A stretch of DNA of 64,000 bases from a virus. This document shows positions 512 through 18,708 of this stretch, in pieces. The stretch's first letter is position 1. Each line of letters starts with the position of its first letter. A program made the position numbers and the translations under genes. Under the pieces are notes generated by a model. It did not search any database. It had not been told where the DNA came from and saw only the letters and a list, made by a program, of their open reading frames with translations. The DNA lies in the IMG/VR virus record IMGVR_UViG_2162886007_000016, positions 1-64,000 of that record; one strand, written 5' to 3'.

Positions 512-988
512 TCAGTCGAAGTCTTCTTCGTCGTCATCGTCGTCATCGTCGTCGTCATCGTCGGAGTCGTCGTCATCGTCGTCGTCCGAGTCATCGTCGT
601 CGTCATCGTCGTCCGAATCATCGTCATCATCATCCGAATCATCGTCGTCATCATCATCGTCGTCCGAATCGTCGTCGTCATCGTCCGAATCGTCGTCGTC
701 ATCGTCGTCGTCATCCGAATCATCATCATCGGAATCGTCGTCGTCATCGTCGTCGTCGGAGTCGTCGTCTTCCGAGTCGTCGTCATCGTCGTCCGAATCG
801 TCGTCATCGTCGTCCGAATCTTCCGGAACGGTCGAACCCACCACTGCGATGGCATCGTCGATGCTTTCGACGCCGGCTTCCTTCATTTCCTGCAGGAGAG
901 CCAGCAGTGCGACAGCCAGGCCAGCGGTCAGCATTTCTGCGGAGAACGCTGGGGCTTTCGCTTTCTTCGACTTCGATTTCTTAGCCAT
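512..988 (-). CDS. Protein with long Asp/Ser acidic repeat tail
   Basis: 158 residues. A basic start (MAKKSKSKKAKAPAF) is followed by a hydrophobic/amphipathic stretch (residues 16-37), and then from about residue 55 an almost pure run of Asp broken by Ser (SDDDDDD units) ending EEDFD. Leader GGAGTCAAACATG supports the start. CTGTAAA motifs lie 42 and 82 nt upstream. Such tails can mimic DNA or chaperone basic proteins, and this phage also encodes several very basic ones. That link is inference; no family is recognised. Confidence 0.75.
   Translation of the reverse strand: MAKKSKSKKAKAPAFSAEMLTAGLAVALLALLQEMKEAGVESIDDAIAVVGSTVPEDSDDDDDDSDDDDDDSEDDDSDDDDDDDDSDDDDSDDDDDDDDDSDDDDDDSDDDDDDDDDSDDDDDDSDDDDDDDDSDDDDDDDSDDDDDDDDDDDEEDFD
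524..836. repeat. Trinucleotide-like low-complexity tract (GTC/ATC)
   Basis: A purely coding microsatellite-like tract (GTC, ATC and GTCC units on the plus strand) encoding the Asp/Ser tail of the 512-988 protein. A similar but shorter tract lies at 5390-5575. Tracts like these are prone to slippage, so the length may vary between isolates or be affected by assembly. Confidence 0.7.
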
Positions 989-1029
989 GTTTGACTCCAG
1001 ATTGTTTGTCAGGTTTGATGCAATGAGAT

Positions 1030-1076
1030 TTTACAGTTTGCAGCAGTGTCGCTGCTTTCACAACGACACTTTACAG
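1030..1076 (-). promoter_or_regulatory. Two CTGTAAA motifs
   Basis: Two minus-strand copies, AACTGTAAA (1030-1036) and ATCTGTAAA (1070-1076), sit in the gap before the acidic protein gene (start 988). The nearer is 42 nt from the start codon, the same spacing seen at other genes in the window. Promoter role inferred. Confidence 0.4.
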
Positions 1077-1103
1077 ATTTGCCTTACGGCCGATCAGCTG
1101 GGC

Positions 1104-1712
1104 TTAGTCGTCCAGGTCGTCGTCATCGTCGAGGTCATCATCCTCGTCTTTGGCTTTCTTCGACTTCTTGGACTTCTTGCCGGACTTCTCAGCCTTGTCG
1201 GCTTTCTTGTCCTTCTTGGACTTCTTGCCTTCGCCTTTCTCGGCACCGGCTTCGTCTTCGGCCACGACGGTAATGCGAACACCGTCATGTTGATACAGCT
1301 TCACAGTTTCACCACCAGCGGTCTGGATGGTCATGACGCCCTTGCTGTCGTCGGTCAGCTTACCGACAACTTCGCGGATCGGCACTTCGCGGATCACGGT
1401 GACGGAAGAGACTTCACCGACGGCACCGAAGACTTCGATCACTTCGCTGCGGTGGAAGCGGCTGACGACCATGCGTTGCGAAGCGCTGGTACGCTTGTGA
1501 CGCAGGACGACGGTGTCACCGCTGTCTTGCACCAGGAAGCCGCCGATTTCAACGGCTTGCTTGGCGAGGACGGTGAAGGTGAACATCGCGCTTTTGACCT
1601 TGAAGCTGGTCTTGGCGCTGATGTTCTTCAGGCGCTTGGCGATCTTGTCGCTACGGGTCAGACGGTTCGCGGTGTTGCGCGCCTTCTTCTCTTTCTTCTC
1701 TTTCTTTGCCAT
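1104..1712 (-). CDS. Hypothetical protein with Lys-rich then Asp-rich tail
   Basis: 202 residues. A basic N-terminus (MAKKEKKEKKARN) leads into a folded-looking beta-rich core (about residues 35-150; VIEVFGAVGEVSSVTVIREV). A Lys/Ala/Ser tail (residues 155-190) and a terminal acidic DDDLDDDDDLDD follow. The Lys tail is shared with the partial gene at 1-317. Leader GAGTAATCAAACATG. No family recognised. Confidence 0.75.
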   Translation of the reverse strand: MAKKEKKEKKARNTANRLTRSDKIAKRLKNISAKTSFKVKSAMFTFTVLAKQAVEIGGFLVQDSGDTVVLRHKRTSASQRMVVSRFHRSEVIEVFGAVGEVSSVTVIREVPIREVVGKLTDDSKGVMTIQTAGGETVKLYQHDGVRITVVAEDEAGAEKGEGKKSKKDKKADKAEKSGKKSKKSKKAKDEDDDLDDDDDLDD

Positions 1713-1718
1713 GTTTGA

Positions 1719-2786
1719 TTACTCACCATCTTTTTCGAGGTTGAAGGCAACGAGGAAATCGCCACCGTTGAACAGGTTGTCTGCGTACTCGTCAGCATCG
1801 AAGCCTTGGATGCCGAAGAAGTCGCCGCCTTCTGCGACGTTGCGGAAGCTGAGGACGCTGGCTTCTGGATCGGTTTCGCGAATCCAGTTGAAGCAGGCGG
1901 CCACTGGCTCGTCGATCAGGTCCTGCGAGTTGAAGCCCGCGTAGATCGTGGTCGGCATGCCGGCCTTGATACCAGCGTTCTCCAGGTACTTCATGTGTTT
2001 CTTGATGACCTGCTCGAACTTGTTGCTTTCCTCGCGGATCAGCAGCGGGATGCGCAGGTGTACGATGAACTTCACAGTTACCGTAACGTTGCGCACCGCC
2101 GCGTCGGCATCATCGTCGTCCAGCTGTGGTTGGACCAGAGCACGGACGCGAACGTAGTTGCGAGCGTCGAGCAGTTCGCCTTCTTCTTCGCCTTCTTCAG
2201 GCGCCAGCTCCAGCACCGGAGTGCCTTCGTAGACCGGGAAGTTTGCGAACAGGGTGTTCTCGGCGACCTTGATGTACTCGGCCACCAGGGTGTTCAGGAT
2301 GGTGCCACCGCCGTCGGCGCTGACCACGATGCGCTCTTCGCCGTTGAGCAGTTGACCCAGGACCTTGACGAACTCGGCCAGAGGCTTGCGCAGTACGCCG
2401 ATGCGGTGGCTGCGTTCGTTCAGGCTCGACAGCGGCTGGATCACGTTGAACTTCTGGTCGTCCAGCTCGTAGCTGTTCAGCTCGATCAGCTTCTTGTGGA
2501 CTTCGTCGTTGAACAGGTTGACCACGAAGTTCAGCTCTGGCTTCACGGTCAGGCGCACCAGGCCTTCGATGCCAGCGCTTTCGCGCAGGAGTTGCTCGAA
2601 GCTGCGAGGTGCAAACTCTTCTTCCAGATCGACGCCGTCATCGACGTTTGCAGCCAGGTTGGTCTCGCCAACGGTTTGTGCGGCGCGGTCAACTGGCAGG
2701 CCGGCAGTGTTGCCTTCGTCTACTGGCTTGGCGCTGGATGCGAGTTGTTGCTGTTGACGTTCGCCGTCACCGATAATGTCGTTCAC
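1719..2786 (-). CDS. Conserved-looking phage protein of unknown function (GTG start)
   Basis: 355 residues starting at GTG (MNDIIGDGERQQQQ), preceded by AAGGAG at 8 nt. The GTGA overlaps the stop of the upstream gene, so the two are translationally coupled. The N-terminal 45 residues are polar and probably disordered. The rest is a mixed alpha/beta fold without catalytic motifs. It is abundant in acidic residues (LAPEEGEEEGELLD), and a virion protein is possible. Function not recognised. Confidence 0.75.
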   Translation of the reverse strand: MNDIIGDGERQQQQLASSAKPVDEGNTAGLPVDRAAQTVGETNLAANVDDGVDLEEEFAPRSFEQLLRESAGIEGLVRLTVKPELNFVVNLFNDEVHKKLIELNSYELDDQKFNVIQPLSSLNERSHRIGVLRKPLAEFVKVLGQLLNGEERIVVSADGGGTILNTLVAEYIKVAENTLFANFPVYEGTPVLELAPEEGEEEGELLDARNYVRVRALVQPQLDDDDADAAVRNVTVTVKFIVHLRIPLLIREESNKFEQVIKKHMKYLENAGIKAGMPTTIYAGFNSQDLIDEPVAACFNWIRETDPEASVLSFRNVAEGGDFFGIQGFDADEYADNLFNGGDFLVAFNLEKDGE

Positions 2787-4147
2787 GATTTGACTCCTTT
2801 AACCTTCGAATAAGAGAAGCAACGCTTGATGTTCACACTTTTGGGACTTGGTCGAATGTTCAACCCAGTCACCGTGTACTGATCGTCGAATGCCCGCTCG
2901 AACTGAGCAATGATATTATCAAGTCCAGAAAGAGCTTTGTCCTCAGTGTATTCCACACCCAGGAAATCGACTACAGGATGGTGCAGTGTACGGAAGCCCA
3001 ACGACTGGAGGTGAACCTTTTCTTTCACCAGAAGCTGTGGTGCCATGAGCTTGCCATTCTGGTAAACAAAGATGCCGGAAGCCACGAATCGCAAGTAGTG
3101 CTCGGGGAACCGCCGGGAGTAGGCTTCCTGTTCGGCTGCAATCTCGGCGGCGCTATTCTCGATGCGTTGCTCTAGCTTTTGTTTACGCTTTTGGTACTTG
3201 GCCAGTTCCGACGCATAACGCTTCGGGTTGGCCTCATACTTGACGAGCTTTTTAAGGACCTCATTCAACTTCTCCCGCAGTTCAATGACCACATGGTCGA
3301 AGTCGGTGCTGCGAGGGTCCTTTACACTCTCCAGATACCTGTGCATCAGCGCACTGACGGTGTTGCAGTCAGGGAAGTGTTCGCGCAGCAAATCGCGCTT
3401 CTGCTTCGGGATGACCAGGGTACCTTGAACCACATACAACTTGGCGGACTCGCCGAACGGCGCGTAGTTCGTGATGATCTTGCGCGAGCCGTGCATGCCC
3501 AGTTCAAGCGGCACTCCCAGCTGGTTTAGTTCGTCGATGGTGTAGATGATCCGTTCACCCAGATGGAGGAACCCACCATACAGGAAAGCGTGGAACGAAT
3601 CACCGACCTTGTACGCACGATACACCAGGTTGATGCGAACACCTGCAAGGCGCGGAGTGATGATGCAACCACTCGGCAACGGTTGGTCGGTGTATTTCTG
3701 TTGCGTGTTGCACTTGCGCATGACCTCGTCAATCGTCTTCTCGACGGCGTTCGGCCACACGAAGTCTTTACGGGCCGTCGACTTGGCGGCTTCGTAGTCA
3801 AGCTTTAGAGCAGCAATGGCTGCGGCGTAAGTCGTGCTCGGCGCAGGCTGCATCATGGCGAAGCAGGCCCAAGCCTCCGCCTTGATCAGGGATTGGCTCA
3901 GACCGAAGCCTGATGCGTACATCATACCCACGGTGTTCATGTCCGGCAAGTTGCCGTTGATGGCACCGAGAACTATTTGCCGCAGCGCTGTGGTGTGTAG
4001 CGCAGGCACAATGTCAATCTCCGAATCGCCCATGCGGCCGTGATACGTGAACCGCATGTGGTCCATCGTGCCACGGTTTGTTGCGACGGTCAGCAGGGAG
4101 CGGCCGTACAGGTTGTTGAGGACAGCGTTGAGTGCATCTGCGTTCAT
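2783..4147 (-). CDS. Hypothetical protein, 454 aa
   Basis: The ATG at 4147 (MNADALNAVLNN) is preceded by an AGGAGG at 8 nt and is preferred over the in-frame ATG at 4174. About residues 270-330 form a long charged helix (YASELAKYQKRKQKLEQRIENSAAE cut here for length), likely a coiled coil. No recognisable domain. It sits directly upstream of, and overlaps, the 1719-2786 gene, so the pair probably works together. Confidence 0.75.
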   Translation of the reverse strand: MNADALNAVLNNLYGRSLLTVATNRGTMDHMRFTYHGRMGDSEIDIVPALHTTALRQIVLGAINGNLPDMNTVGMMYASGFGLSQSLIKAEAWACFAMMQPAPSTTYAAAIAALKLDYEAAKSTARKDFVWPNAVEKTIDEVMRKCNTQQKYTDQPLPSGCIITPRLAGVRINLVYRAYKVGDSFHAFLYGGFLHLGERIIYTIDELNQLGVPLELGMHGSRKIITNYAPFGESAKLYVVQGTLVIPKQKRDLLREHFPDCNTVSALMHRYLESVKDPRSTDFDHVVIELREKLNEVLKKLVKYEANPKRYASELAKYQKRKQKLEQRIENSAAEIAAEQEAYSRRFPEHYLRFVASGIFVYQNGKLMAPQLLVKEKVHLQSLGFRTLHHPVVDFLGVEYTEDKALSGLDNIIAQFERAFDDQYTVTGLNIRPSPKSVNIKRCFSYSKVKGVKS

Positions 4148-4170
4148 ACTTCGTACCTCCTGAGCACAGT

Positions 4171-4569
4171 TCACACTTTCTCGCCGAACAAGCCTTTGAG
4201 CTTTGCAGCGCCCATACGGTCCAGCAGGTCCGGTGCGTCAGCAGCCACCTTACCGGCGGCAACCATCTCGGCGTGCGCATCGACAAACGGTTCACAGAAA
4301 ATCTCAACCACCGTCTGGGCGTTGTCGTCGTGCTCTACATCGTCGCCGTATTGGACGACCAGCACACCGTTAACACCGGACGTCACGGCCGGAATAGCGA
4401 CCAGCGAGTGTACGCCAATCACCGCGTTCAGTTCCGCAAACTTGTCGATCACCGCATCGTCTGTGGCATCGAGGTCATCCATGGCCGGATCGAGGTTGAG
4501 CATTTCATACGGCATCACGGCGAACGGTGTTTCGGAGTCCGCCATAATCATTCGGAGGTGCTTAATCAT
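4171..4569 (-). CDS. Small acidic hypothetical protein
   Basis: 132 residues, acidic, without recognisable motifs (VMPYEMLNLDPAMDDLDATDD). The start is uncertain: ATG at 4569 (MIKHLRMIMADSE) is the longest option, but internal ATGs at residues 7 and 9 are possible and none has a strong Shine-Dalgarno. It lies in the same minus-strand run as its neighbours. Confidence 0.6.
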   Translation of the reverse strand: MIKHLRMIMADSETPFAVMPYEMLNLDPAMDDLDATDDAVIDKFAELNAVIGVHSLVAIPAVTSGVNGVLVVQYGDDVEHDDNAQTVVEIFCEPFVDAHAEMVAAGKVAADAPDLLDRMGAAKLKGLFGEKV

Positions 4570-4587
4570 GTTCTTGTACTCAGTGAG

Positions 4588-5031
4588 TTAGGCTTTGCCA
4601 GTGAGTTCGTCGTTCCACGACTGGGCAATAATGTCGGTGAGCGTTTGCTCCGTCGGACGAATCGCGTTTGTTTGCACCATCGCGTTTACGGCGTGATGGC
4701 GCAGTTGGGTATTCAACTCGGAGAGCGTGATTTGCAGGTGACGCTCAACCATGAAGAGGATACGACGCAGTGCCTCACTGTCACGATCCCCAACAGGTTC
4801 GTCATTGTGGTACACGACCGCTGCACCTTGCTTGGTGTGGATAATCACCAGATAGTGATCTTCCTTCAAACCGGTAGGGCGGTAGGCAACAAACTCAACA
4901 GGCGTGTGCCGTACGTGAATACCAATCGAACGCACCAGCTCTACAAGGCCGGAGTTGAACTCTTGGTGAACCTTCACACCCAGCTCAGGAACGACGGACA
5001 GTTCAAACAGCATTTTGATGGCAGACAGCAT
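4588..5031 (-). CDS. Hypothetical protein, 147 aa
   Basis: Starts MLSAIKMLFELSVV with AAGGTG about 6 nt upstream. Mixed alpha/beta composition, no motif recognised. Followed within 20 nt by the next gene on the same strand, consistent with one transcript. Confidence 0.65.
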   Translation of the reverse strand: MLSAIKMLFELSVVPELGVKVHQEFNSGLVELVRSIGIHVRHTPVEFVAYRPTGLKEDHYLVIIHTKQGAAVVYHNDEPVGDRDSEALRRILFMVERHLQITLSELNTQLRHHAVNAMVQTNAIRPTEQTLTDIIAQSWNDELTGKA

Positions 5032-5054
5032 ACGGCACCTTCATGTTAGTGGTT

Positions 5055-5070
5055 GGGGCCCGAAGGCCCC
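5055..5070 (-). terminator. GC-rich hairpin with TTCG loop
   Basis: On the minus strand GGGGCC-TTCG-GGCCCC lies just downstream of the stop of the 5078-6535 gene. The stem is perfect and the tetraloop is very stable, but there is no T-run directly after it. It could be a terminator or a 3'-end stabiliser. Confidence 0.5.
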
Positions 5071-5077
5071 GGTGGTG

Positions 5078-6535
5078 TTAGTCGTCGGAGTCGTCGTCTT
5101 CAACGATTTCCATGCGCGCAGCATCGGCAATGGACTTGCTGCGGAACTTGTTGTTGCTGAGGTTGAGCAGCTTGACCTCTTCTTCCTCCTCGTCGTAACC
5201 GACCAGCAGGAACTCGGTGTCGTCGCCCTTGGCGGTCAGGCGAGTTTGACCTGGGACCATGTCGTCGCCGAACTTTTCTTCGATTTCGTCGCTGGCCAGA
5301 TAGGCTTCAACAAACCCGCGCACCTTGTCGGCGTTGAGCTTCGGCGCGATTTCGGTGATGGCTTCGACCATGTCGTCAACGGACACGTCACCATCATCGT
5401 CATCGGTGTCATCCGAATCATCGTCATCGTCCGAGTCGTCGTCATCGTCGTCAAGGTCGGTATCGGTATCATCGTCCGCCTCGTCGTCGTCAATGTCATC
5501 GTCCGAGTCGTCATCGTCATCGGTGTCGGTGTCGTCATCGTCGTCCGAATCATCATCCGAGTCGTCGTCTTCCTCGGGAAGTTCAACGCCCGCCTTCTCG
5601 GCAGCTTCACGGATGGTGTCGTCGTCGTTGTCGTCGTCTTCACGGATGAGGGCGATAACAGCATCGAGGTCCATCGACTTCTTGGTGGTGAGGCCGAGCT
5701 TACGTGCAATCTTCTTGGCGTCAGCAACATCCAGCTTGCCGAGAAGTTCGTCAGTCACGGCCTGGTCATCTGCATCATCGTCGTCCAGGTCGTCGTCATC
5801 CAGCTGGTCGTCATCCTCGTCATCAGGAGCAACGTCGGTGGATTCGCGGTGATCGCGGATGTACGCCTTGATTTCTTTCGCCGACTTCGCAGCCGACATG
5901 AAGGTCAGATTGATGGTGGCGCTGTCGTCGTTGAAGCGTGCGCCTACGGCAACGGGCACGACGTTGTAGGTACCGTGCGTGGCGAGTGCAGGGCCAACGT
6001 ATTCGAGAATCTCCTGAGCCAGGCGCTCGGCGATGGCTTGCTCGAAGCTCGTAAACATTTTCTTTTTCTTGGCCTTGGCCGGAGAGCCTGCATCGTCTTC
6101 GTCACGGCTCACCTTGCGAGCGCGTTTGTTTGTGGCCGGCTCGTCATCGTCGTCCTTCTTGTTGCGATTGCGCGCACGGGTGGACGTTGGCTTGCCGCCA
6201 TTCTCGGCCGCTTCACGTTCACGACGTTCACGGCGACGGCGTTGACGTGGCGACTCGGTCGGAGTGTCGTCGTCCTCGTCCTTCTTGTTGCGGCTACGGG
6301 CGCGAGTGCTGGCAGGCTTCGCTTCGGCCTTATCAGCTTTCTTCTTGCCTTTCTTCGGAGTGTCGTAGAAGAAGCCAGGACCGCGTTTGTAGATGCCATC
6401 CATGTGCGCCTCTGCGCCTTCTTCGGTCAGCACGGTACCAGCCTTCAACGCAACCTTGGCGACACGGTGGCGCACGCCGTCGATGGTGATGCGCTTACCT
6501 TCCATGCCTTTCAGATCGTCTTTGGTGATTGCCAT
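5078..6535 (-). CDS. Large low-complexity protein with basic and acidic segments
   Basis: 485 residues. The N-terminal 60 residues look folded (ITIDGVRHRVAKVALKAG). A Lys/Arg-rich linker with two near-identical RNKKD repeats (STRARSRNKKDEDD and STRARNRNKKDDDD) follows. A helical region (about 145-240) precedes long Asp/Ser tracts (about 240-390), then a folded C-terminus ends EIVEDDDSDD. Leader GAGGACTCAAACATG. No family recognised; one of at least four very acidic proteins in this part of the genome. Confidence 0.75.
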   Translation of the reverse strand: MAITKDDLKGMEGKRITIDGVRHRVAKVALKAGTVLTEEGAEAHMDGIYKRGPGFFYDTPKKGKKKADKAEAKPASTRARSRNKKDEDDDTPTESPRQRRRRERREREAAENGGKPTSTRARNRNKKDDDDEPATNKRARKVSRDEDDAGSPAKAKKKKMFTSFEQAIAERLAQEILEYVGPALATHGTYNVVPVAVGARFNDDSATINLTFMSAAKSAKEIKAYIRDHRESTDVAPDDEDDDQLDDDDLDDDDADDQAVTDELLGKLDVADAKKIARKLGLTTKKSMDLDAVIALIREDDDNDDDTIREAAEKAGVELPEEDDDSDDDSDDDDDTDTDDDDDSDDDIDDDEADDDTDTDLDDDDDDSDDDDDSDDTDDDDGDVSVDDMVEAITEIAPKLNADKVRGFVEAYLASDEIEEKFGDDMVPGQTRLTAKGDDTEFLLVGYDEEEEEVKLLNLSNNKFRSKSIADAARMEIVEDDDSDD

Positions 6536-8514: not shown

Positions 8515-8988
8515 TTACGCGGCTTTGGCCTTGGTTGCTGGCTTCTTGGCGCTATCAGCCTTGGCCTTGACTGGGGCTTTCACGGCAGGCTTGGCCGCTG
8601 GCTTGGCGGCTTTGGCCGGAGCTTTGGCTGCTGGCTTGGTAGAAGGCTTGGCCAGCTTGGCGGCAGCGCGCTGTTCGGCACGGGTAGGCTTCTTGGCAAC
8701 TGGCTTGCTCTCGGTCTTGGTACCACGAGCGTTGGTCGGTGCTTTGACGGCCGGCACCTTCTTGGTCGCTGCGGTAGCGGAGTTCAGAGCGTTGGTCGCG
8801 GCGGCGGCCTTCTTGAGGGCAGCTTCGGCCTTCTCGCTTGCGGTGTTCAGTTCAGCCAGAGCAGCGGTCAGCTTGGCTTCAAGGGCAACGACGGTCTTCG
8901 AGGCCTTGGTAACGCCACGGCTGGCGGCGGTCAGTTCGGTGCGAGCTTGTTTGGCCTGAGCTTGGGCGGCGACGATTTTTGCGGTCAT
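8515..8988 (-). CDS. Histone-H1/AlgP-like Lys/Ala/Pro-rich protein
   Basis: 157 residues from the ATG at 8988 (MTAKIVAAQAQAKQ); a longer frame reaches 9099 but lacks a good start context. Residues 1-70 form an alanine-rich amphipathic helix (probable coiled coil). The rest is KPAAKAPAKAAKP-type repeat, as in eukaryotic H1 tails and bacterial AlgP/HctB-like proteins, so DNA or RNA binding is likely. A second, larger protein of this kind lies at 52547-53515. Confidence 0.75.
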   Translation of the reverse strand: MTAKIVAAQAQAKQARTELTAASRGVTKASKTVVALEAKLTAALAELNTASEKAEAALKKAAAATNALNSATAATKKVPAVKAPTNARGTKTESKPVAKKPTRAEQRAAAKLAKPSTKPAAKAPAKAAKPAAKPAVKAPVKAKADSAKKPATKAKAA

Positions 8989-9038
8989 GTTCGGTAGTTC
9001 CTGTTTGATTTGGATACGTGTACGGATTGCACACACCG

Positions 9039-9061
9039 AAGGGCTCCTGCGCGAAGCCCTT
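9039..9061 (-). terminator. Hairpin AAGGGCT/AGCCCTT
   Basis: A 7-bp stem around a 9-nt loop in the gap between the 9074-9286 stop and the 8988 start (minus-strand transcription). It lacks a long T-run, so attenuation or stability is as likely as termination. Confidence 0.45.
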
Positions 9062-9073
9062 GAGTTTGAACAA

Positions 9074-9286
9074 TCAGGCGACCAGTGCCGTGGTTGCAAA
9101 CTTCACCCGTGCCGAGAACGCAAGGCTCACCAGCGGAATATCAGCTAGCGGTGCGTCGTAGTCCTCTGCAAACTCCGACAACTGGTACTCGCGCACGGCG
9201 TCACCGTACTTGGCGGTCAGTGTGTCGGTCTTTGGGTTGAGCGACAGGTGAATGTTGTTCAGGTTGAAAGCAGAATGAGTGGTCAT
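9074..9286 (-). CDS. Small hypothetical protein, 70 aa
   Basis: Start chosen at 9286 (MTTHSAFNLNNIHLS), which has AAGAGAA about 8 nt upstream; the longer frame to 9391 would overlap the neighbouring gene. Beta-rich and acidic in the middle (FAEDYDAPLADIP). Function unknown. Confidence 0.65.
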   Translation of the reverse strand: MTTHSAFNLNNIHLSLNPKTDTLTAKYGDAVREYQLSEFAEDYDAPLADIPLVSLAFSARVKFATTALVA

Positions 9287-9308: not shown

Positions 9309-9521
9309 TTAGGCGATGGTTTCAGCGGCGGAGCGTAGCTGGGCGATGAACTTCTCCCGAGCGCGGACAAGCAACAGGTCACGGGTTTCATACGCCGTTG
9401 GCTGTGCCTTCATTTCCGCGAGTGTCACCAGATGCGCAAACATATACGTGGCAGTGAGTGCGCCGAATGAGCAACGCACCACGCCCGATTGACTGTCCAT
9501 TGTCGTGTTAACTTTTGACAT
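9309..9521 (-). CDS. Small hypothetical protein, 70 aa
   Basis: MSKVNTTMDSQSGVV. First gene of the unit transcribed from the promoter at about 9590. The N-terminus is beta-rich and a C-terminal helix runs to the end (LLLVRAREKFIAQLRSAAE). Function unknown. Confidence 0.65.
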   Translation of the reverse strand: MSKVNTTMDSQSGVVRCSFGALTATYMFAHLVTLAEMKAQPTAYETRDLLLVRAREKFIAQLRSAAETIA

Positions 9522-9555
9522 CCACTAACCTCAACTAAGTCCGTAACCAATATGC

Positions 9556-9575
9556 TCGAAGCATCGTCTTGCTTC
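9556..9575 (-). promoter_or_regulatory. 5'-UTR hairpin
   Basis: CGAAGCA and TGCTTCG pair over a 6-nt loop between the -10 box and the 9521 start. It would sit at the extreme 5' end of the transcript, where it may protect the mRNA. Confidence 0.45.
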
Positions 9576-9583
9576 GTGCGTCC

Positions 9584-9615
9584 ATTATAGCACACTCAGA
9601 AAGCGGTTACTAGGC
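9584..9615 (-). promoter_or_regulatory. Sigma70-like promoter with extended -10
   Basis: Minus strand TGCTATAATGG (TATAAT at 9589-9584) is an extended -10. The -35 region is weak. The block GCGTAACCGTTAA upstream and GCTATAATGG itself recur in the promoter at 14875, so the two were probably copied or are co-regulated. It likely drives 9309-9521 and downstream minus-strand genes with the host RNA polymerase. Confidence 0.7.
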
Positions 9616-9632
9616 CGTTAACGGTTACGCTC

Positions 9633-10514
9633 TTAGTTCAGGAATCGAGCGTACTGGCCTATGGTGTTCTCAATCTGTCGTGCTTCTAGTGCTTTACAGA
9701 TGATGTGCACCGCGTTCAAGTCTGGCTCGCCGATTGCCAACTTCGCAATGTCGTAGTCGATGATCTTCTGGTGGATGGTCACCAGTCGGCGCGTCAGTCT
9801 GAATTGCTTGCGTGCGGCCTCGAAGTTTGCGGCCTGCGTCTTATTGAGCACGCGGATATCGGCGTCTTCAATGCGATCCGCGGATGCGACAAGCTTGGCG
9901 AGCGCGACTGGGCCGATGCCGTCAACACCTGGGATGTTATCGACCTTATCGCCTTGCATCATCAACATGCACGGCACACGCTTCGGCTCCACCAGATAGT
10001 GCTTCGCGCAGTTGCGGTGCGTGAGCTCCAGATAATCCTTGGTATGCTGCTCATACTTCAGGATGCGCAGGCGCTTGCGAAGGAGCTGGGCGAAGTCCTT
10101 GTCGTTGCTGACAATCTCGACCTCCATATCTTCGTCGAAGTCGTGCGCGATGCGGGCGAGCGTGCCGATAATGTCGTCAGCCTCGGTGCCTTTCTTGTGC
10201 ACCACCTTGATACCCATGGCGCGCAGCAGATCGTACAGAGGTTTGCGCTGTGGTCGCAGGCGAGCCTGCTGCTCTGGGTCTTTCTCTCGCGTGCCCTTGT
10301 ACTCCGGATAAATCTTGTGGCGGTGCGTCGGATGCGGACGGTCAAACACGAACGCGACGTGCGTAGGCTTGCGCGTCTTGATCAGGCTGGTGACGATGTT
10401 GATGGTGCCCTTGATCGCGTTCGTGTGGAACCCTTTCGAGGTTTTCATTTCAGGGACGGCGAAGAAGCCACGCATGAACACGTTGCTGCCGTCGAAGATC
10501 AGGAGCTTACTCAA
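9633..10514 (-). CDS. 5'-3' exonuclease (FEN / PolA N-terminal type)
   Basis: 293 residues, similar in length to T5/T4-type flap nucleases. The TTG start at 10514 (AAAGG upstream) is needed to include the first metal ligand in LLIFDGSNVFMRGFF. Further family motifs are GTEADDIIGTLAR, SNDKDFAQLL and the helix-hairpin-helix segment GDKVDNIPGVDGIGP. Expected to remove RNA primers and trim flaps during phage replication, acting with the phage's own primase. Start overlaps the upstream gene's stop. Confidence 0.92.
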   Translation of the reverse strand: MSKLLIFDGSNVFMRGFFAVPEMKTSKGFHTNAIKGTINIVTSLIKTRKPTHVAFVFDRPHPTHRHKIYPEYKGTREKDPEQQARLRPQRKPLYDLLRAMGIKVVHKKGTEADDIIGTLARIAHDFDEDMEVEIVSNDKDFAQLLRKRLRILKYEQHTKDYLELTHRNCAKHYLVEPKRVPCMLMMQGDKVDNIPGVDGIGPVALAKLVASADRIEDADIRVLNKTQAANFEAARKQFRLTRRLVTIHQKIIDYDIAKLAIGEPDLNAVHIICKALEARQIENTIGQYARFLN

Positions 10515-10797
10515 GGACGTAGACCTTTGGTATGTAGAGTTTGCGCCCAGCGTGTGCTTTGATCAGGAGGAACCCTGGCGACCGTGCGATCACCTCAACG
10601 GGACCGCTCGGCACATCAACACAACGCTGTGCGAGCCGGATGTTGCGAATGGTCTTGGCGTCTGACTTGCCGATGGCATCATTGTACCGCACCCAGTCAT
10701 CTTGGGTGCGGCAGCCGAATCCCGGCTTCGCCATTAGGGTTGGCTGCGGTGCTTGATAGACCAACAGGCACAGCAGCACTACCCAGACGTATCTCAC
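10507..10797 (-). CDS. Small secreted protein, SH3-like (GTG start)
   Basis: 96 residues. The GTG start overlaps the upstream TGA. The hydrophobic N-terminus (MRYVWVVLLCLLVYQ) is a signal peptide. The mature part has two cysteines and ends in a beta-rich segment (VEVIARSPGFLLIKA) reminiscent of SH3-type folds. Probably periplasmic; role unknown. Confidence 0.7.
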   Translation of the reverse strand: MRYVWVVLLCLLVYQAPQPTLMAKPGFGCRTQDDWVRYNDAIGKSDAKTIRNIRLAQRCVDVPSGPVEVIARSPGFLLIKAHAGRKLYIPKVYVLE

Positions 10798-11261
10798 TGA
10801 GGGTTGTCCGGAGTCTTGATTTCATCAGGCTCCTCACCGAACAGTTCGAGGTCCCAAGACTGGGTCTTCGGATACGCGACAGGGAAGTAGTTGGCCGAGG
10901 CCCAACGTTCTTCAAACTTGCCGGTGACGTCCTTCCAGGTGAAGCGCACGATCCACAGGGGACCGTTGCCCGTCATGACGACGGCGTGTTCCTTGATGAT
11001 GACCTGCGCATCGGTATTCAGGAACGAGCAGGCTTTCGACTTGAACGTCGCACCCACATGCTTCTTGAAACCTTCCGTGTCATTGTCACCCGCAAACTTG
11101 ACGAGGCTGTAGGCGTCATCAGATTTGTGGCAGACGATGGCTTCTGGCGTACCGCGGTCAGTGAACTCATGCGGGATCACGCTTGGCACAGGGCGAACGC
11201 CCATGTTTGCGTGAGCGCCTGCAGAAGCCAGCATCAGTGCAGCGAGCAGAACCTTGTTCAT
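10794..11261 (-). CDS. Secreted/periplasmic hypothetical protein
   Basis: 155 residues with a clear signal peptide (MNKVLLAALMLASAGAHA, cleavage after HA). The mature domain contains two cysteines about 30 residues apart and ends in an acidic Pro-rich tail (EEPDEIKTPDNPQ). Coupled by overlapping stop/start codons to genes on both sides. Function unknown; export suggests an effect on the host envelope. Confidence 0.72.
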   Translation of the reverse strand: MNKVLLAALMLASAGAHANMGVRPVPSVIPHEFTDRGTPEAIVCHKSDDAYSLVKFAGDNDTEGFKKHVGATFKSKACSFLNTDAQVIIKEHAVVMTGNGPLWIVRFTWKDVTGKFEERWASANYFPVAYPKTQSWDLELFGEEPDEIKTPDNPQ

Positions 11262-11533
11262 CAGTCTTCCTTAGTGAGGTTGTGTATTGCTTGTTGGTAG
11301 GTGAGTTTGATCGCGTAACGGTTTGCAGCAAGCGTGACCACGATGGCGATACCGTGGCCAATGGTCACGTACAGTGGATTGTACGGACCGTTCAGGTTAC
11401 ACGCGATGAAGAAGATCAGGAACTGCATCGCAATATAGAACCGTGACACTTGGTTGATGCAAGCTTGGTGCTCGGTGACCAGCTCGGCGTTGGTGATCCA
11501 ACGGTTGTTGTGAAATTCGCCAACGTGGTGCAT
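11261..11533 (-). CDS. Small membrane protein, two transmembrane helices
   Basis: The ATG at 11533 (MHHVGEFHNNRW) overlaps the upstream stop as TGATG, so it is preferred over 11569. Two hydrophobic segments are visible (YIAMQFLIFFIAC and LYVTIGHGIAIVVTLAA). Size and topology are holin-like, but it lacks a family signature. Confidence 0.65.
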   Translation of the reverse strand: MHHVGEFHNNRWITNAELVTEHQACINQVSRFYIAMQFLIFFIACNLNGPYNPLYVTIGHGIAIVVTLAANRYAIKLTYQQAIHNLTKED

Positions 11534-12297
11534 CAAACAAGTTCCCAGGTGCGGTGAGTGAGTGACCACGAGGCGAAGATGTTGCCCGACGCCTTGGTCT
11601 TCTTGGTTGCAGGTACGTGACGGCGAATGATGCAGCCAAGGTGCGGCACGTTGCGCTTGGAGTGCGTGCGCCGTGCTTCCTTGTAGGTTGCATACGGCTT
11701 ACTCACTGGGTACCCGTCGATTTCAAACGTGTAGGACACGTCGTTCTCCAGGTCTTGCTTCGCCAGTGCTTGGTCGTGCATCGAGGTGAAGAAGTTGAGC
11801 TGGTTGCGGTAGCGCCCGTTGATCGACTGCACCTGTTGTTCGTGGTGAAGGTCTTCCTGCTTGAGCTCCTCACGCATGGCTTTGTACAGGTTCTGCCGCA
11901 GGTCATGCAACTGGTCTGGCGTCATGCGGAGCAGATAGTCCGAGTACCAGCTAGTCAGCATCTTGGTGTCGAGGCTGACGAAGGCTTCAAGCGCTTCGCG
12001 GAAGGTACCGATGAACAGAGCGTTCTGGAACTGACCGTGTTCAGGGTCGATGATCGCGACGGCGTACACCGACTTTGGCTTGGCGATCGGGACAATCAAC
12101 TTGAGCGCATCGGCGCGAGCGAACTGCCACTCCTGCCCGAGGTACCGCGTGAAGTACAGCGGCTGCGTGGAGTCTGATACTTCAACGTCACGGTTGAGGA
12201 CGCTAAACACCTCGCAGATGATGTTGGCGAGTTGCTTAGGTGTCTTGGCACCCAGCATCATACCGATATCGCTACCACCCTTATTCGTCTTGGTCAT
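11533..12297 (-). CDS. Tandem paralogue family member 1
   Basis: 254 residues, related by eye to the next three upstream genes. The shared core is a short strand, F(R/N/T)EA(L/F)xAF/Y, then a helix of about 25 residues ending in TP(D/E) and a long Lys/Gln-rich helix (here IGTFREALEAFVSLD and RMTPDQLHDLRQN). The C-terminus HRTWELV resembles NEWEFV of member 3. Function unknown; head-to-tail duplication implies a dosage or specialisation role. Confidence 0.75.
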   Translation of the reverse strand: MTKTNKGGSDIGMMLGAKTPKQLANIICEVFSVLNRDVEVSDSTQPLYFTRYLGQEWQFARADALKLIVPIAKPKSVYAVAIIDPEHGQFQNALFIGTFREALEAFVSLDTKMLTSWYSDYLLRMTPDQLHDLRQNLYKAMREELKQEDLHHEQQVQSINGRYRNQLNFFTSMHDQALAKQDLENDVSYTFEIDGYPVSKPYATYKEARRTHSKRNVPHLGCIIRRHVPATKKTKASGNIFASWSLTHRTWELV

Positions 12298-13171
12298 GTT
12301 CTTGATCTACCAGATGCCAGAATTGTGTTTGAGAGTCGAACTTGGCAATCAGTTCAGGTTGACTACCATTTACAGATCGCTTGATCCATGCTGACGTCGA
12401 GCCATCTTTTTGGCGGTGTTTCTCTGCGAGCGCCCAGAAGTCGGTACCTTGACTCAAGAGGCGCTTGCTGAATGCCTTGGTCAGCGTGTACTGAATGTCG
12501 GCGTCCGGCAGGTCACGCAGAATGTTTGCAGTCTGTGCCATCAGGATGTTGCGCATCGGCGCTTCGTACCGTTCAGCCAGAGTCATGCGGGTCTTGGCAA
12601 ACTCCTTCCAGAGTTCGTCAAACTCGCGCTTGTGGTGGCGCTGCAGGAACTGTTTACCCTTGCCAAGTTCGTCGTCGCTTTGTGCCTGCAGGTACGAAAT
12701 CATGTGGCTGTACAGGGTCGAGGTGCTGGCATCAAAGAACAGTCTGGACGCCTGCTCGAAATCGCCGACAGCCAGACCGTTGACCTCACCGTCGATCACG
12801 TCCATCGTCAACCACGTGGTGTCGCTCAGCCCAAGATGAAACGGCGGATTGGCAGAGAGCATTTCCATGTGCGACGAATCGAGCGCGAACGGCAAGTTGT
12901 CGAACGGCGTGCTCGCAGGAGCCAGAACGCGATAGCGGGCGCGACGGGCGCGGGTGCTTTGGACGTGCGCGTACTGGAACATCATGTTCTTCTGGGCATC
13001 GGCCTTGTACAGCGTTGGTGCCCACATGATTACCAGTTCGGCACCATCTAGACCCATTTCGTTCTCGGCAGTTTCGGTACGCTGGGTCGACTTCCAGTGA
13101 CCACGTGTATCACGGGTGAAGCCGAAGAAGTCGCGCAGTTCGTTCTGGTGGGTGAAAACTGGCTTGCTCAT
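12281..13171 (-). CDS. Tandem paralogue family member 2
   Basis: 296 residues from the ATG at 13171 (MSKPVFTHQNELRDF), which has GGGAG 7 nt upstream. It aligns with member 3 over most of its length: FFGFTRDTRGHW vs FMGYSQDVHGEW, ARYRVLAPASTPF vs RTLRTLVPLNTPI, GDFEQASRLFF vs GDWTQALKAYL. No catalytic motif. Confidence 0.75.
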   Translation of the reverse strand: MSKPVFTHQNELRDFFGFTRDTRGHWKSTQRTETAENEMGLDGAELVIMWAPTLYKADAQKNMMFQYAHVQSTRARRARYRVLAPASTPFDNLPFALDSSHMEMLSANPPFHLGLSDTTWLTMDVIDGEVNGLAVGDFEQASRLFFDASTSTLYSHMISYLQAQSDDELGKGKQFLQRHHKREFDELWKEFAKTRMTLAERYEAPMRNILMAQTANILRDLPDADIQYTLTKAFSKRLLSQGTDFWALAEKHRQKDGSTSAWIKRSVNGSQPELIAKFDSQTQFWHLVDQEHDQDE

Positions 13172-14061
13172 ACAAACTCCCATTCATTGAGTGTGGTGTT
13201 GCTGTACAGGTACGGTTCGGTGACCTCACCCAGCTTGCGCCAGATGATCTTCGGACGAGCACGCGAACCTAGGCTGTGCAGCACACGGTTCATCAGCGCG
13301 TGAACATTCAACGTCCAGCCAGCACCAGCTACGTCACCAATGTCACGCAACTGGTAGCGCACTTCGACGCCGCTACGACTGGCGATCAACTCGTCGGCAT
13401 GAATGATCTTGACCATGGCCGCAACATACTGACTGACTGCCGCCTCAGCCTTTTCGTCGGCCTGGGTTTGAATCAAGGACAACTCGTCTGCTCTGGCGCT
13501 CTGCAGGAAGCGAGCCGTCTCGCGGAGCTTTCCCACGCCGAGATTGGCGAGGTACTCCAAGTAGCTTTGACTCAGCGCTTCGGACGAGTCTTCAAGGTAG
13601 GCTTTGAGCGCCTGTGTCCAGTCACCGATGAACAGGCCAAGTACGACGCCTCGGTTTTCCTCAAACACCATCCAGTGGTTGGCAGGGCCTTGCATCACGA
13701 AGTCACAACGGTGCTCCGATGGGCGCACAACCGAGGTGTTCAGGTCGGTCACAAACACCGCGTCACGAATGGGTGTGTTCAGCGGCACCAGGGTGCGCAG
13801 GGTGCGCGAGCGTGGTGAGACAGCCTTGCCCGACAGACTGTAGGTGAACATCAGCACCGGCTTGCGCTTGACGTTGACCACCTTGTTCCACATGTAGATG
13901 GAGTCTTTGAGGCCGAACGCAGTTTGCTCTGGCATCTTGGCGCGCTGCGACGGATAGATGCGACCCCACTCGCCATGCACGTCTTGACTGTAACCCATGA
14001 ACTTGACGAAGGCTTCTGGTGTGGAAAGTTCGGCGATGAGGTTGTCAGCTTTCTTGGTCAT
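13168..14061 (-). CDS. Tandem paralogue family member 3
   Basis: 297 residues. Leader CCTGGGGATTCAAACATG is identical to that at 8489. Family core as in member 2; the C-terminal half carries a long helix (QADEKAEAAVSQYVAAM) and a terminal beta segment ending LNEWEFV. Overlaps member 2 by 4 nt. Confidence 0.75.
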   Translation of the reverse strand: MTKKADNLIAELSTPEAFVKFMGYSQDVHGEWGRIYPSQRAKMPEQTAFGLKDSIYMWNKVVNVKRKPVLMFTYSLSGKAVSPRSRTLRTLVPLNTPIRDAVFVTDLNTSVVRPSEHRCDFVMQGPANHWMVFEENRGVVLGLFIGDWTQALKAYLEDSSEALSQSYLEYLANLGVGKLRETARFLQSARADELSLIQTQADEKAEAAVSQYVAAMVKIIHADELIASRSGVEVRYQLRDIGDVAGAGWTLNVHALMNRVLHSLGSRARPKIIWRKLGEVTEPYLYSNTTLNEWEFV

Positions 14062-14078
14062 GTTTGAATCCCCAGGTT

Positions 14079-14100
14079 GGTGGGCGCGTGAACACCCACC
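14079..14100 (-). terminator. Hairpin between paralogues 3 and 4
   Basis: GGTGGG and CCCACC pair in the gap just after the stop of paralogue 4 and before the 14061 leader. No T-run; it may tune readthrough or mRNA stability. Confidence 0.35.
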
Positions 14101-14109
14101 ATGTTGCGG

Positions 14110-14811
14110 TTAGTTGAAGTAGCCAGTCACGCGCTTGTGGCGAGTTTCGAGTTTGGCGAGCTTCTTGGCATGTACCTTCATCTGCTGTGCCACATCCCGC
14201 TTGTGCTTGGTAGCCGTGACCCCAAGACGAAACGCCCTGTCTTCAGGTGTCAGCTTGGCGACAAACTCCGCGATCGAGGTGTTGGCGCTGTCGAAGTTCG
14301 GGTCGACGAAGGCCGTGAACGCTTCGTTGAAAGTGCCGGACGCGATGTGCTTGATGCCCTTGTCGTACTCAAACTCAATCATAACCCAAGCATCGGGGCC
14401 ACCGAGCATCGTCTCACACCCGTACTCGATTTCGGCCATGATGCCGTCGTCAAGTTCGTCAAGGTCAACGGGTGCGGGGAATGGCTCTGCGCGAACAATA
14501 GCCTCGGCTTCGCAGAGTATGCGGCGCTTGGCGCCAGCGCCTGTGACAAACAGGTGAGACCACTCACCGTCGGCCTTGATGACCCAGTCGCTCCAGACAA
14601 TCTTCTTGGTCCAGTTGAACAAGGCGCGTTCGTGCGCTTTGATCGTCACGTTGGAATTACGGTAGTATTCGGTGTTGGGTCGCGGATACTCTTCGGCGTC
14701 GTCACCATCGGCAGGTGCGGTGCCATCAACTTCTGCGCGGTAACCCAAGGCGGAAAGCAGGTCTTCAGGCGTGGCGATGCTCGCGATGGCCTGTGCAAAC
14801 TTTTCACTCAT
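14110..14811 (-). CDS. Tandem paralogue family member 4 (divergent)
   Basis: 233 residues from the ATG at 14811 (MSEKFAQAIASIAT), with GAGG 8 nt upstream. It shares the family core with member 1 (SGTFNEAFTAFVDPN, AKLTPEDRAFRL) but has an acidic N-terminal insert (PADGDDAEEYPRP). It is the first gene after the promoter at 14875. Confidence 0.72.
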   Translation of the reverse strand: MSEKFAQAIASIATPEDLLSALGYRAEVDGTAPADGDDAEEYPRPNTEYYRNSNVTIKAHERALFNWTKKIVWSDWVIKADGEWSHLFVTGAGAKRRILCEAEAIVRAEPFPAPVDLDELDDGIMAEIEYGCETMLGGPDAWVMIEFEYDKGIKHIASGTFNEAFTAFVDPNFDSANTSIAEFVAKLTPEDRAFRLGVTATKHKRDVAQQMKVHAKKLAKLETRHKRVTGYFN

Positions 14812-14874
14812 GTTCGTAACCTCATCTATTATCATAACCAATAAGCAGTACGCTCGGTGCGTCTCTGCATCACC

Positions 14875-14910
14875 ATTATAGCATAACTGAAATCAGTAGT
14901 GCAAGGGCTT
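14875..14910 (-). promoter_or_regulatory. Sigma70-like promoter with CTGATTTCAG operator-like element
   Basis: Minus strand: TTGCAC, 18 nt, then TATAAT (14880-14875) with an extended TGC. The spacer contains TACTGATTTCAG, an inverted-repeat-like element also found four times at 29.05-29.54 kb. The upstream block GCGTAACCGTTAA matches the promoter at 9584. It drives the paralogue cluster. The 14812-14990 gap holds this promoter and a terminator, with no gene. Confidence 0.7.
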
Positions 14911-14960
14911 TAACGGTTACGCTGATAGTCAAGGTATCGCGTGTGGAGCACAGAGACGAC

Positions 14961-14985
14961 AAAGCCCGACACGAGGCCGGGCTTT
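14961..14985 (-). terminator. Terminator after the 56-aa gene
   Basis: Minus strand AAAGCCCGG...CCGGGCTTT, 8-9 bp stem, directly after the stop of the 14991-15161 gene. It isolates the promoter at 14875 from upstream transcription. Confidence 0.65.
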
Positions 14986-14990
14986 GACTG

Positions 14991-17082: not shown

Positions 17083-18708
17083 TTACTCGAAGATGAGGCC
17101 AGACTTGTTCTTGTCTGGGTTCTTGAGATAAGCCTTCACCCGATCCAGCGTATCGGCAGCTGCGCGTTCGCCAGGTTGCTTGAGGTCTTTGTTGAGCACT
17201 TTCAACTCGGCCTCAATGTCCTTGATCTTCGCTTTCAGTGCGGCGGCTTCCATCGCAGCCAGCTGGCGAACCTTCCGATCGAGAATGATCTGGGCGTCTT
17301 CCAGCGGAATCTTCATCGACTTCGCCAGCGTCTTCTCGGGATCGTCAGACTTCAACACCTTCGGCAGGAGCTTGAGCAACTGCTCCATGTTCTCGACAGC
17401 GAACAGGTAGACCTTGTTGACGTACAGGTCGCGCTCTGCCTTGGCGATCAGGTGATGGATCATCTTGACTTCAAGGCCGATGCGGTACTTGACCCATGCG
17501 GCGAAGAAGTCTGGGTAGTTCATGTACTTGAACTTGTTGGCGGCATTCTCGCGACGGATCGTGATGCCGAGTCGGTAGTTCACACTACTGGTGACCTTGC
17601 GCTCGATTTCCTCGACGATATCCATGAAGCGGTCTTCGCCGACGTTCTTGCCGCACTCGACGATGAACATGGCGCCATACGGGCCGGCGTTCTTGGTCTT
17701 CTTGCCCTGCTTGTTGAACGCACGCTTCACGCCGGTAATCTTGGCGATGGCTTCGAGCGTCTTGTCGATGGCCTTGATCGACGACAGGCCGGCAGGCACG
17801 AACGAGCGAATCTGGATGGTGCGAGTCTTGAACTCGGAGTCCATCAGTGGCGCGTAGGTGATGTTGCCCTTACCTGTGGCGATCATTTCGAGGTAGGCTT
17901 CTTCCTCGGTCACGTCTTCACAACCGTAGGCGTGCTGAATCTCCAGCACTTGCGCCAGCTTCTTGGCGTTGAACTCTTTGCCCTTGAGCATGGCAATGAC
18001 GATCTTCGCCACGGACTTCACGGAGAAGCTCGGGTTACCTGCGCGCACACCGTACGCTGGCGCTGGCACGTTACCGTTGAACAGCACGTACGGGAGCAGC
18101 GCTGGCAGATACAGCGGGATCACGTCGTCGCCGGAGAAGTTCGGCACCTTCGGCACGACTTCCAGATACTTCGAGTCCAGCAGGAAGCGGTGCGCAAACT
18201 TCGACATGCGCGCTTCGGTGTATCGCTGGGCCGCAGCTGGGTTGATCGGCGAGCCCCAGTTACCTTGACCATCGACAGCAGGTGGCATGGTGTTTGCGAT
18301 AGTCACCATCGCGCCGTATGCTGCGGCATCACCGTGCGGGTGATACTTACCGATGGTGTCGCCGACAGTTCGTGCCGACTTCTTGTAGCCGTTGGACGGA
18401 CGCAGGTTCAAGCCAGCGAGCGACCAGAGCAGCGAACGGTGCACAGGCTTGAGCCCGTCACGGAAGTCAGGGACCGCACGCTCTTCCACGACATACGAGC
18501 CGTAGGTAAACATCGCTTCGGCAGTGAAGCCCTTGAGCGTCTGGTCCTTGATTTCGGTGCCTTCGTGACCCAGCATGGGGAAGCGCGAGTAGCCAGTCAT
18601 CGGCAGCGTTTCGAGCAGCTTGTTCACTAGGTGCTTTGGTACTTTGGTCTTGCCCTTCACTTTCTCAGGCGCTTCGGCAATCGCCGCTTTCTTCGTTTTC
18701 TTGGCCAT
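17083..18708 (-). CDS. Type II DNA topoisomerase, GyrA/ParC-like (T4 gp52-like) subunit
   Basis: 541 residues, short relative to about 800-880 for GyrA, so it has the breakage-reunion core without the C-terminal pinwheel. Motifs: DGLKPVHRSLL (84-94), IGKYHPHGD (119-127) and AAAQRYTEARM with catalytic Tyr163. A coiled coil follows near the C-terminus (LEDAQIILDRKVRQLAAME). Together with the overlapping GyrB-like gene it forms an ATP-dependent enzyme that relieves or manages supercoils during phage replication. TGATG overlap ensures coupled synthesis. Confidence 0.93.
   Translation of the reverse strand: MAKKTKKAAIAEAPEKVKGKTKVPKHLVNKLLETLPMTGYSRFPMLGHEGTEIKDQTLKGFTAEAMFTYGSYVVEERAVPDFRDGLKPVHRSLLWSLAGLNLRPSNGYKKSARTVGDTIGKYHPHGDAAAYGAMVTIANTMPPAVDGQGNWGSPINPAAAQRYTEARMSKFAHRFLLDSKYLEVVPKVPNFSGDDVIPLYLPALLPYVLFNGNVPAPAYGVRAGNPSFSVKSVAKIVIAMLKGKEFNAKKLAQVLEIQHAYGCEDVTEEEAYLEMIATGKGNITYAPLMDSEFKTRTIQIRSFVPAGLSSIKAIDKTLEAIAKITGVKRAFNKQGKKTKNAGPYGAMFIVECGKNVGEDRFMDIVEEIERKVTSSVNYRLGITIRRENAANKFKYMNYPDFFAAWVKYRIGLEVKMIHHLIAKAERDLYVNKVYLFAVENMEQLLKLLPKVLKSDDPEKTLAKSMKIPLEDAQIILDRKVRQLAAMEAAALKAKIKDIEAELKVLNKDLKQPGERAAADTLDRVKAYLKNPDKNKSGLIFE

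What the first reader, a model, noticed from the sequence alone, without database searches (positions are those of the whole stretch)
11533..14811. Four tandem diverged paralogues of unknown function
Members 2 and 3 align along most of their length, members 1 and 4 share the core. They sit head to tail behind one strong promoter with an operator-like spacer. Repeated duplication and divergence is a sign of an arms race or of hetero-oligomer parts.
Basis: seen in the sequence. Interest (0 to 1): 0.55.

Follow-up and report, generated by a model that had tools for sequence, protein, structure and literature searches.

The report
Constant-and-variable paralogue array in phage
A giant bacterial virus carries four neighbouring, distantly related copies of an undescribed gene under one unusual switch; one copy type is conserved between related viruses while the other changes very fast, as expected of proteins that act against the bacterial host.

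Summary
Four ORFs on the minus strand (W1 14110-14811, W2 13168-14061, W3 12281-13171, W4 11533-12297) are true paralogues; all six pairs beat 1000 of 1000 shuffles. The family has no convincing Pfam, PHROG, NCBIfam or PADLOC match. It occurs at the same place, between a 5'-3' exonuclease and topoisomerase genes, in Pseudomonas jumbo phage PaBG and three IMG/VR contigs, two copies in each. Two classes exist: a conserved, basic '140-like' gene (W4) and a fast-changing, mostly acidic '141-like' gene (W1-W3 here, one copy elsewhere). In one pair of related phages the 140-like gene is 92% identical but its 141-like neighbour 43%, with DNA similarity lost only inside that gene. The array starts at a compound promoter: an extended -10 bracketed by inverted boxes (TAACC...GGTTA) at fixed spacing. 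Exactly two copies lie in this window; in related phages it precedes histone-like, zinc-ribbon-like and HTH-like genes. I read the array as an early host-interaction module, W4 the constant partner and W1-W3 the variable ones. Timing, partnership and target are inferred. W4's C-terminal domain resembles anti-CRISPR AcrIF9 in predicted fold (Z 6.1), but sequence tests do not support kinship.

The parts
14110..14811 (-). W1, 141-like (variable class), 233 aa, acidic (pI 5.1), lacks the C-terminal domain
13168..14061 (-). W2, 141-like (variable class), 297 aa, pI 8.5; N-terminal alpha/beta core modelled with fair confidence
12281..13171 (-). W3, 141-like (variable class), 296 aa, acidic (pI 5.9); starts on the stop of W2
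11533..12297 (-). W4, 140-like (constant class), 254 aa, basic (pI 8.9); orthologue of PaBG_140 (38% over 186 aa); long helix then a beta-alpha-beta-beta-beta C-terminal domain (residues about 187-254) with motif KEARRxHS[KR]RNxP
14910..14923 (-). upstream box AGCGTAACCGTTAA of the compound promoter
14886..14897 (.). palindrome ACTGATTTCAGT in the promoter spacer
14875..14883 (-). extended -10 element TGCTATAAT
14833..14839 (-). downstream inverted box GGTTATG, in the 5' leader
9544..9627 (-). second copy of the same compound promoter (0 mismatches to consensus), ahead of a 70-aa ORF and a lysine/alanine-rich histone-like gene
10794..11261 (-). syntenic neighbour downstream of W4, orthologue of PaBG_138 (33%); probably same transcript (inferred)
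9633..10514 (-). 5'-3' exonuclease, PaBG_137 orthologue (69%), left boundary of the syntenic block
17083..18708 (-). type II topoisomerase subunit A, PaBG_146 orthologue (76%), right boundary of the syntenic block

Best explanation
The array is an accessory host-interaction module of PaBG-like jumbo phages. It is transcribed early by host RNA polymerase from an extended -10 promoter that a phage- or host-encoded DNA-binding protein can shut or open by holding the two inverted boxes that bracket it. One paralogue (W4, 140-like) is the constant, basic part; the other (W1-W3, 141-like) is the variable part, kept as one copy in relatives and as three diverged copies here. The parts share an N-terminal alpha/beta core, a long helix and, except in W1, a small C-terminal domain. 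They most likely pair through the helices, with the constant part holding a common ligand (probably nucleic acid, from its invariant basic helix) and the variable part contacting a fast-evolving host protein, such as a defence or regulatory factor. SHOWN: paralogy, two classes, synteny, conservation contrast, promoter conservation. INFERRED: early timing, pairing, nucleic-acid binding, host target.
For: Paralogy. Two classes on the tree, each on one side of a branch with support 100/99. Same locus, exonuclease-138-140-141-142...topoisomerase, in PaBG, G010 and G011, and in part in G014. G011 v G014: 140-like 266/289 identical, dN 0.046, dS 0.51; 141-like 130/301 identical, and blastn DNA similarity covers bases 1-74 and 870-5864 of the G014 locus but nothing between, i.e. 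is lost inside the 141-like gene (49-957); 42% is the lowest of the 17 ORF matches listed for that pair. Against PaBG the 141-like gene is the fastest of the block: 23%, against 38% for W4, 69% for the exonuclease, 76% and 85% for topoisomerase subunits. All 5 of 5 140-like proteins are basic (pI 8.9-9.4) and 6 of 7 141-like acidic. The genes are kept intact: between strains W1-W4 together have 38 synonymous and 8 nonsynonymous codon changes (L028), 19 and 3 (L035). The compound promoter precedes the first 141-like gene in 4 of 4 lineages whose upstream DNA is held, one with a mismatch in the pattern used (G011, TCACC for TAACC); G014 shows its downstream half at the contig edge. Exact fits in the window: 2, next best 7 mismatches. 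Elsewhere the same promoter leads genes that look by eye like histone-like, zinc-ribbon and HTH proteins.
Against: No expression data: early timing rests on promoter type and on the kind of co-regulated genes. Strain-level changes are mostly synonymous, so no positive selection is seen at short range. The hypervariability contrast rests on one pair of phages, both metagenome contigs. W2 is not acidic. W1 lacks the C-terminal domain. Pfam has no HTH or zinc match for two of the co-regulated proteins scanned. The proposed regulator was not found: the HTH-like protein led by this promoter in G011 has no match in 6 other records. No host target and no known fold with convincing score.
Confidence: 0.4

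Rival explanations
1. Early takeover or regulatory proteins that do not pair: each paralogue independently modifies a host machine, and the copies simply partition targets.
For: Shared promoter with histone-like, zinc-ribbon-like and HTH-like genes; copy number varies from one to three in the variable class; the domain layout differs (W1 has no C-terminal domain).
Against: A conserved class and a variable class always sit side by side in 5 of 5 records with a match, and their charges are opposite in sign for 11 of 12 proteins, which a set of independent effectors would not need.
Confidence: 0.3
2. Virion or internal head proteins injected with the DNA.
For: Long helices and tandem paralogues are known from internal proteins of large phages (recalled, no call).
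Against: Neither gene is among the 14 PaBG virion bands identified by mass spectrometry (PMC7412058 Table 1), though minor virion-associated proteins listed only in its supplement could not be read. The genes sit among replication genes behind a sigma-70 type extended -10, away from the structural genes seen in PaBG.
Confidence: 0.1
3. Relaxed constraint: the 141-like genes are dispensable and drift fast; the tandem copies are leftovers.
For: G010's 141-like C-terminal end lies in another frame; W1 has lost the C-terminal domain.
Against: All four ORFs are open and changes between strains are mostly synonymous; in G011 v G014 the gene's ends stay conserved and dN (0.60) is still below dS (1.09).
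Confidence: 0.15

Closest known systems
PaBG_00140 and PaBG_00141 of Pseudomonas phage PaBG (hypothetical proteins)
   Same: Homologous, same order and place, same compound promoter ahead of PaBG_141.
   Different: Two genes, not four; PaBG_141 is only about 23% identical to W2; both annotated as hypothetical with no stated function.
AcrIF9 anti-CRISPR (PDB 6w1x)
   Same: Predicted fold of the W4 C-terminal domain: VIA Z 6.1, 57 of 64 residues, rmsd 2.5, 23% identity, rank 1 of 996 chains aligned; both are small beta-sheet domains around one basic helix. AcrIF9 uses K31, R32, K36 (and K58, R63) as a positive patch on DNA (PMC7264359). In my by-eye alignment W4 A208-R209-R210-x-x-S213-K214 falls on AcrIF9 A30-K31-R32-x-x-S35-K36.
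   Different: Z is below 8 and Rubisco small subunits follow at 5.8. Profile-profile score is no better than chance (62 of 300 column shuffles reach it; the reversed profile scores higher). Single-sequence shuffles reach the score in 240 to 1443 of 2000. W4 is 254 aa with a core and a long helix that AcrIF9 (68 aa) lacks.
sigma-70 extended -10 early promoters of phages
   Same: TGnTATAAT with a weak -35.
   Different: Flanking inverted boxes TAACC/GGTTA at fixed spacing (ACC to TATA 36-37, TATA to GGTTA 40-42 in 11 promoters); I found no description of these in the papers searched.

Membership tests
PaBG_140/141 family | Sequence homology above chance | tested here: met
   W4 v PaBG_140 E 5e-46, W2 v PaBG_141 E 9e-9 in a 21-protein set; tblastn 1e-37 and 5e-3 against all phages.
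PaBG_140/141 family | Same gene neighbourhood and promoter | tested here: met
AcrIF9 anti-CRISPR family | Same fold | tested here: inconclusive
   Z 6.1 to 6w1x_I on a model of pLDDT about 75-87 in that domain; Foldseek itself gave no hit at E<=0.001.
AcrIF9 anti-CRISPR family | Sequence similarity above chance | tested here: not met
   (not listed at E<=10)
AcrIF9 anti-CRISPR family | Inhibits type I-F Csy complex | not testable with these tools
   needs an assay
Any described Pfam, PHROG, NCBIfam or PADLOC family | Match at curated threshold | tested here: not met
   No curated cut-off reached for W1-W4; best stray hit among members is phrog_25722 (no name), E 0.001 for one of 4 C-terminal domains, found in 2 of 5 records but also ringing in 5 of 14 control genomes at E<=10.
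Virion proteins of PaBG | Present among identified virion bands | tested here: not met
   Absent from the 14 bands of Table 1 of PMC7412058; supplement not readable.
Phage early genes | Transcribed early in infection | not testable with these tools
   Only promoter type and co-regulated genes seen.

The most novel reading that the evidence does not exclude
A jumbo phage counter-defence machine built from paralogues: a constant nucleic-acid-holding subunit with an AcrIF9-like C-terminal domain, and a swappable, hypervariable partner gene kept as a cassette and here multiplied to three, all switched with other early genes by a clade-specific regulator that brackets the promoter through two inverted boxes about 78 bases apart.
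Probability: 0.12. Interest if true: 0.78.

Novelty: new variant of a known kind. Interest (0 to 1): 0.5.

Why it matters
Fast-changing early genes next to a conserved paralogue are where phages keep tools against host defences; here the constant/variable split gives a natural control inside one operon. The compound promoter is a sequence handle that pulled out three lineages not found by protein search of the array, and marks a small early regulon in phages where most genes have no known function. If the variable gene is an anti-defence part, the pair tells which side faces the host.

Tried and rejected
Searches that led nowhere: P0003 in phages (no match); P0004 in plasmids (none); W4 C-terminal domain alone against PDB sequences (none); profiles A5 and A6 against PDB sequences (only chance hits); Foldseek against PDB with both models (nothing at E<=0.001); A7 in bacterial genomes (14 stretches, none a relative); last 141-like scan of viral contigs (only the two known).

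AcrIF9 kinship was tested and is not supported by sequence; kept only as a fold lead. Other weak fold rows (CapZ, Rubisco small subunit, coiled coils) were not followed.

The two small ORFs under the second promoter (9309-9521 and the ORF after it) looked like paralogues by eye; shuffles do not support it (641 of 2000). W1-W3 as a lineage-specific triplication is not settled: the tree does not join them, and the AU test does not reject it (p 0.058). The HTH-like protein of G011 as common regulator: no match in 6 records.

Rows set aside: promoter-pattern stretches L026 and L033 and L066 and L074 are AT-rich, unrelated sequence and were judged chance. Records G012, G007, G008, G015 and G016 gave no family match; neither the topoisomerase (G012, G007) nor the exonuclease (G015, G012, G016) matched either, so for these they say nothing on absence; G008 was tested for neither marker. 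Seven topoisomerase-bearing relatives (L012, L013, L014, L018, L019, L020, L022 records) gave no match.

Structure alignment A4: the PaBG_140 row began one codon before its ATG, and both PaBG rows lacked their last residue.
Full report
What is there. The window is part of a 114 kb virus record from a relative of Pseudomonas phage PaBG: the topoisomerase gene matches PaBG at 78% DNA identity, and the block from PaBG_131 to PaBG_152 is collinear with window 6-24 kb. Four ORFs, W1 to W4, fill 11533-14811 on the minus strand.

Are they paralogues? Yes. Six pairwise local scores each exceed all of 1000 shuffles. W2-W3 is the closest pair (24% over 205 residues). A six-row profile finds the same four and no other copy in the record; a twelve-row profile repeats this. 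The identities are low (about 19-24%), so the duplications are old or the divergence fast.

Two classes. In PaBG the same slot holds two genes: PaBG_140, orthologue of W4 (38% over 186 aa), and PaBG_141, nearest to W2 (23%). Three further IMG/VR contigs, found by promoter or domain searches, hold one gene of each class: G010, G011 and G014 = L056. On a tree of 12 proteins the 140-likes and 141-likes are each on one side of a branch (support 100/99); inside the 141-like side branches are long and unresolved, and W1-W3 are neither shown nor excluded as a clade (p-AU 0.058). So this phage has one constant-class gene and three variable-class genes, against one and one in 4 of 4 relatives with a match.

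Constant and variable. G011 and G014 are close: aligned DNA is 82.6% identical over about 5 kb. In that pair the 140-like protein is 266/289 identical (dN 0.046, dS 0.51), while the adjacent 141-like protein is 130/301 identical (dN 0.60, dS 1.09). The DNA match covers bases 1-74 and 870-5864 of the G014 locus and nothing between, the 141-like gene being 49-957. Of 17 ORF matches listed for the pair, the 141-like is the lowest, 42%. This is what allele exchange or diversifying selection on one gene would leave. It is one pair only. Between the window and two near-identical strains the four genes change mostly at synonymous positions (38 v 8 and 19 v 3 codons), so they are maintained. The classes also differ in charge: 5 of 5 140-likes are basic, 6 of 7 141-likes acidic; W2 is the exception.

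Fold. W2: N-terminal part about 1-98 and 129-173 fair, C-terminal part poor (mean pLDDT 59.5). W4: C-terminal domain 187-254 good (blocks 74-87), first 115 residues poor (mean 55.5). Put together: alpha/beta core, long helix (about 55-59 residues), small beta-alpha-beta-beta-beta domain. The W2 model matches the BFVD model of PaBG_140 with probability 1.00, which supports a shared fold between classes, though PaBG_140 was in the input alignment. No PDB fold reaches a convincing score.

The AcrIF9 lead. The second-look aligner ranks AcrIF9 (6w1x_I) first for W4's C-terminal domain: Z 6.1, rmsd 2.5, 57 of 64 residues, 23% identity. AcrIF9 is described as a five-stranded sheet cradling a helix, with a positive patch K31, R32, K36, K58, R63 that holds DNA (PMC7264359; passages and section 8 read). 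W4-class proteins have an invariant run KEARRxHS[KR]RNxP at the matching helix; the residue-by-residue match is mine by eye. Against it: the tool warns that Z below 8 may be common arrangement; Rubisco small subunits score 5.8; sequence profiles of the two families score no better than shuffles (62 of 300 reach it; the reversed control is higher) and single sequences likewise. I therefore do not file it as an AcrIF9 relative. That the domain binds nucleic acid is an inference from its conserved basic helix.

The promoter. Upstream of W1 on the minus strand: CGTAACCGTTAA, then the palindrome ACTGATTTCAGT, then TGCTATAATG, then TATTGGTTATG in the leader. The same layout, with no mismatch in boxes and -10, lies at 9544-9627; the next best place in the 64 kb window has 7 mismatches, and five single-strand shuffles give 6-8. 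A gapped pattern finds 2 in the 114 kb record, 3 places in PaBG and 0 in three other jumbo phage records, with 0 in the backward controls. Two pattern scans of 2.9 million viral contigs gave 13 and 23 stretches, from the window's strains, PaBG, G010, G011, G012 (with G007, G008 and G016, same sequence) and G015, plus four stretches I set aside as chance. In 11 compared promoters ACC-to-TATA is 36-37 and TATA-to-GGTTA 40-42 bases. It stands directly before the first 141-like gene in the window, PaBG, G010 and G011 (one mismatch in the last), and G014 shows its downstream half. Elsewhere it leads ORFs that look by eye like lysine-rich histone-like, zinc-ribbon and HTH proteins; Pfam had no match for the two of these I scanned. 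Symmetric boxes around a promoter at constant distance suggest one dimeric or looping regulator; none was identified.

How it most likely works. Host RNA polymerase starts the array early; a regulator on the two boxes closes or tunes it. W4-class protein is the constant part, W1-W3 the variable parts that meet a fast-changing host factor; opposite charge and long helices suggest they pair. Early timing, pairing, ligand and target are inferred, hence confidence 0.4.

What is known. PaBG genes 140 and 141 are hypothetical proteins in the record. The PaBG paper (PMC7412058: outline, part 1 of 3 of the Results, tables and legends, and found passages read) does not use the words paralog or tandem, speaks of duplication for the tail sheath and of a promoter once in general terms, and lists neither product among 14 virion bands. 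Searches of the paper library for PaBG with early promoters and for related ideas gave nothing on this array (listings only).

Noticed in passing
window 9309-9521 (-): 70-aa ORF directly behind the second compound promoter; PaBG has an unannotated homologue (44.8% over 67 aa) behind the same promoter.
   Followed up: partly
window 8515-9099 (-): Lysine/alanine/proline-rich histone-like protein, orthologue of PaBG_136, behind the second promoter; in G011, G012/G007 and G015 similar lysine-rich ORFs follow the same promoter directly.
   Followed up: partly
L012 16579-17936: A more distant topoisomerase-bearing relative (64%) carries its own three-gene tandem array of small paralogues between topoisomerase and its next conserved genes (0 of 2000 shuffles for each pair); unrelated to W2 by sequence.
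   Followed up: partly
L051 10773-11677 (G010 contig): The C-terminal end of the G010 141-like protein lies in another reading frame; assembly error or real break, not resolved.
   Followed up: no
window about 14960-14988: By eye, an inverted repeat with T run (AAGCCCGGCCTCGTGTCGGGCTTTG on the minus strand) separates the PaBG_142 orthologue from the array promoter; similar GC-rich repeats stand there in PaBG, G010 and G011.
   Followed up: no
L070, L073, L075, L077 (G007, G008, G016, G012): The same promoter leads two adjacent ORFs of about 180 and 171 aa that look like XRE-type HTH proteins; candidates for the regulator that reads the boxes.
   Followed up: no
window 11261-11569 (-): Short hydrophobic ORF after W4, by position the counterpart of PaBG_139; the corresponding ORF is the second most divergent of the G011/G014 pair (51%).
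   Followed up: no
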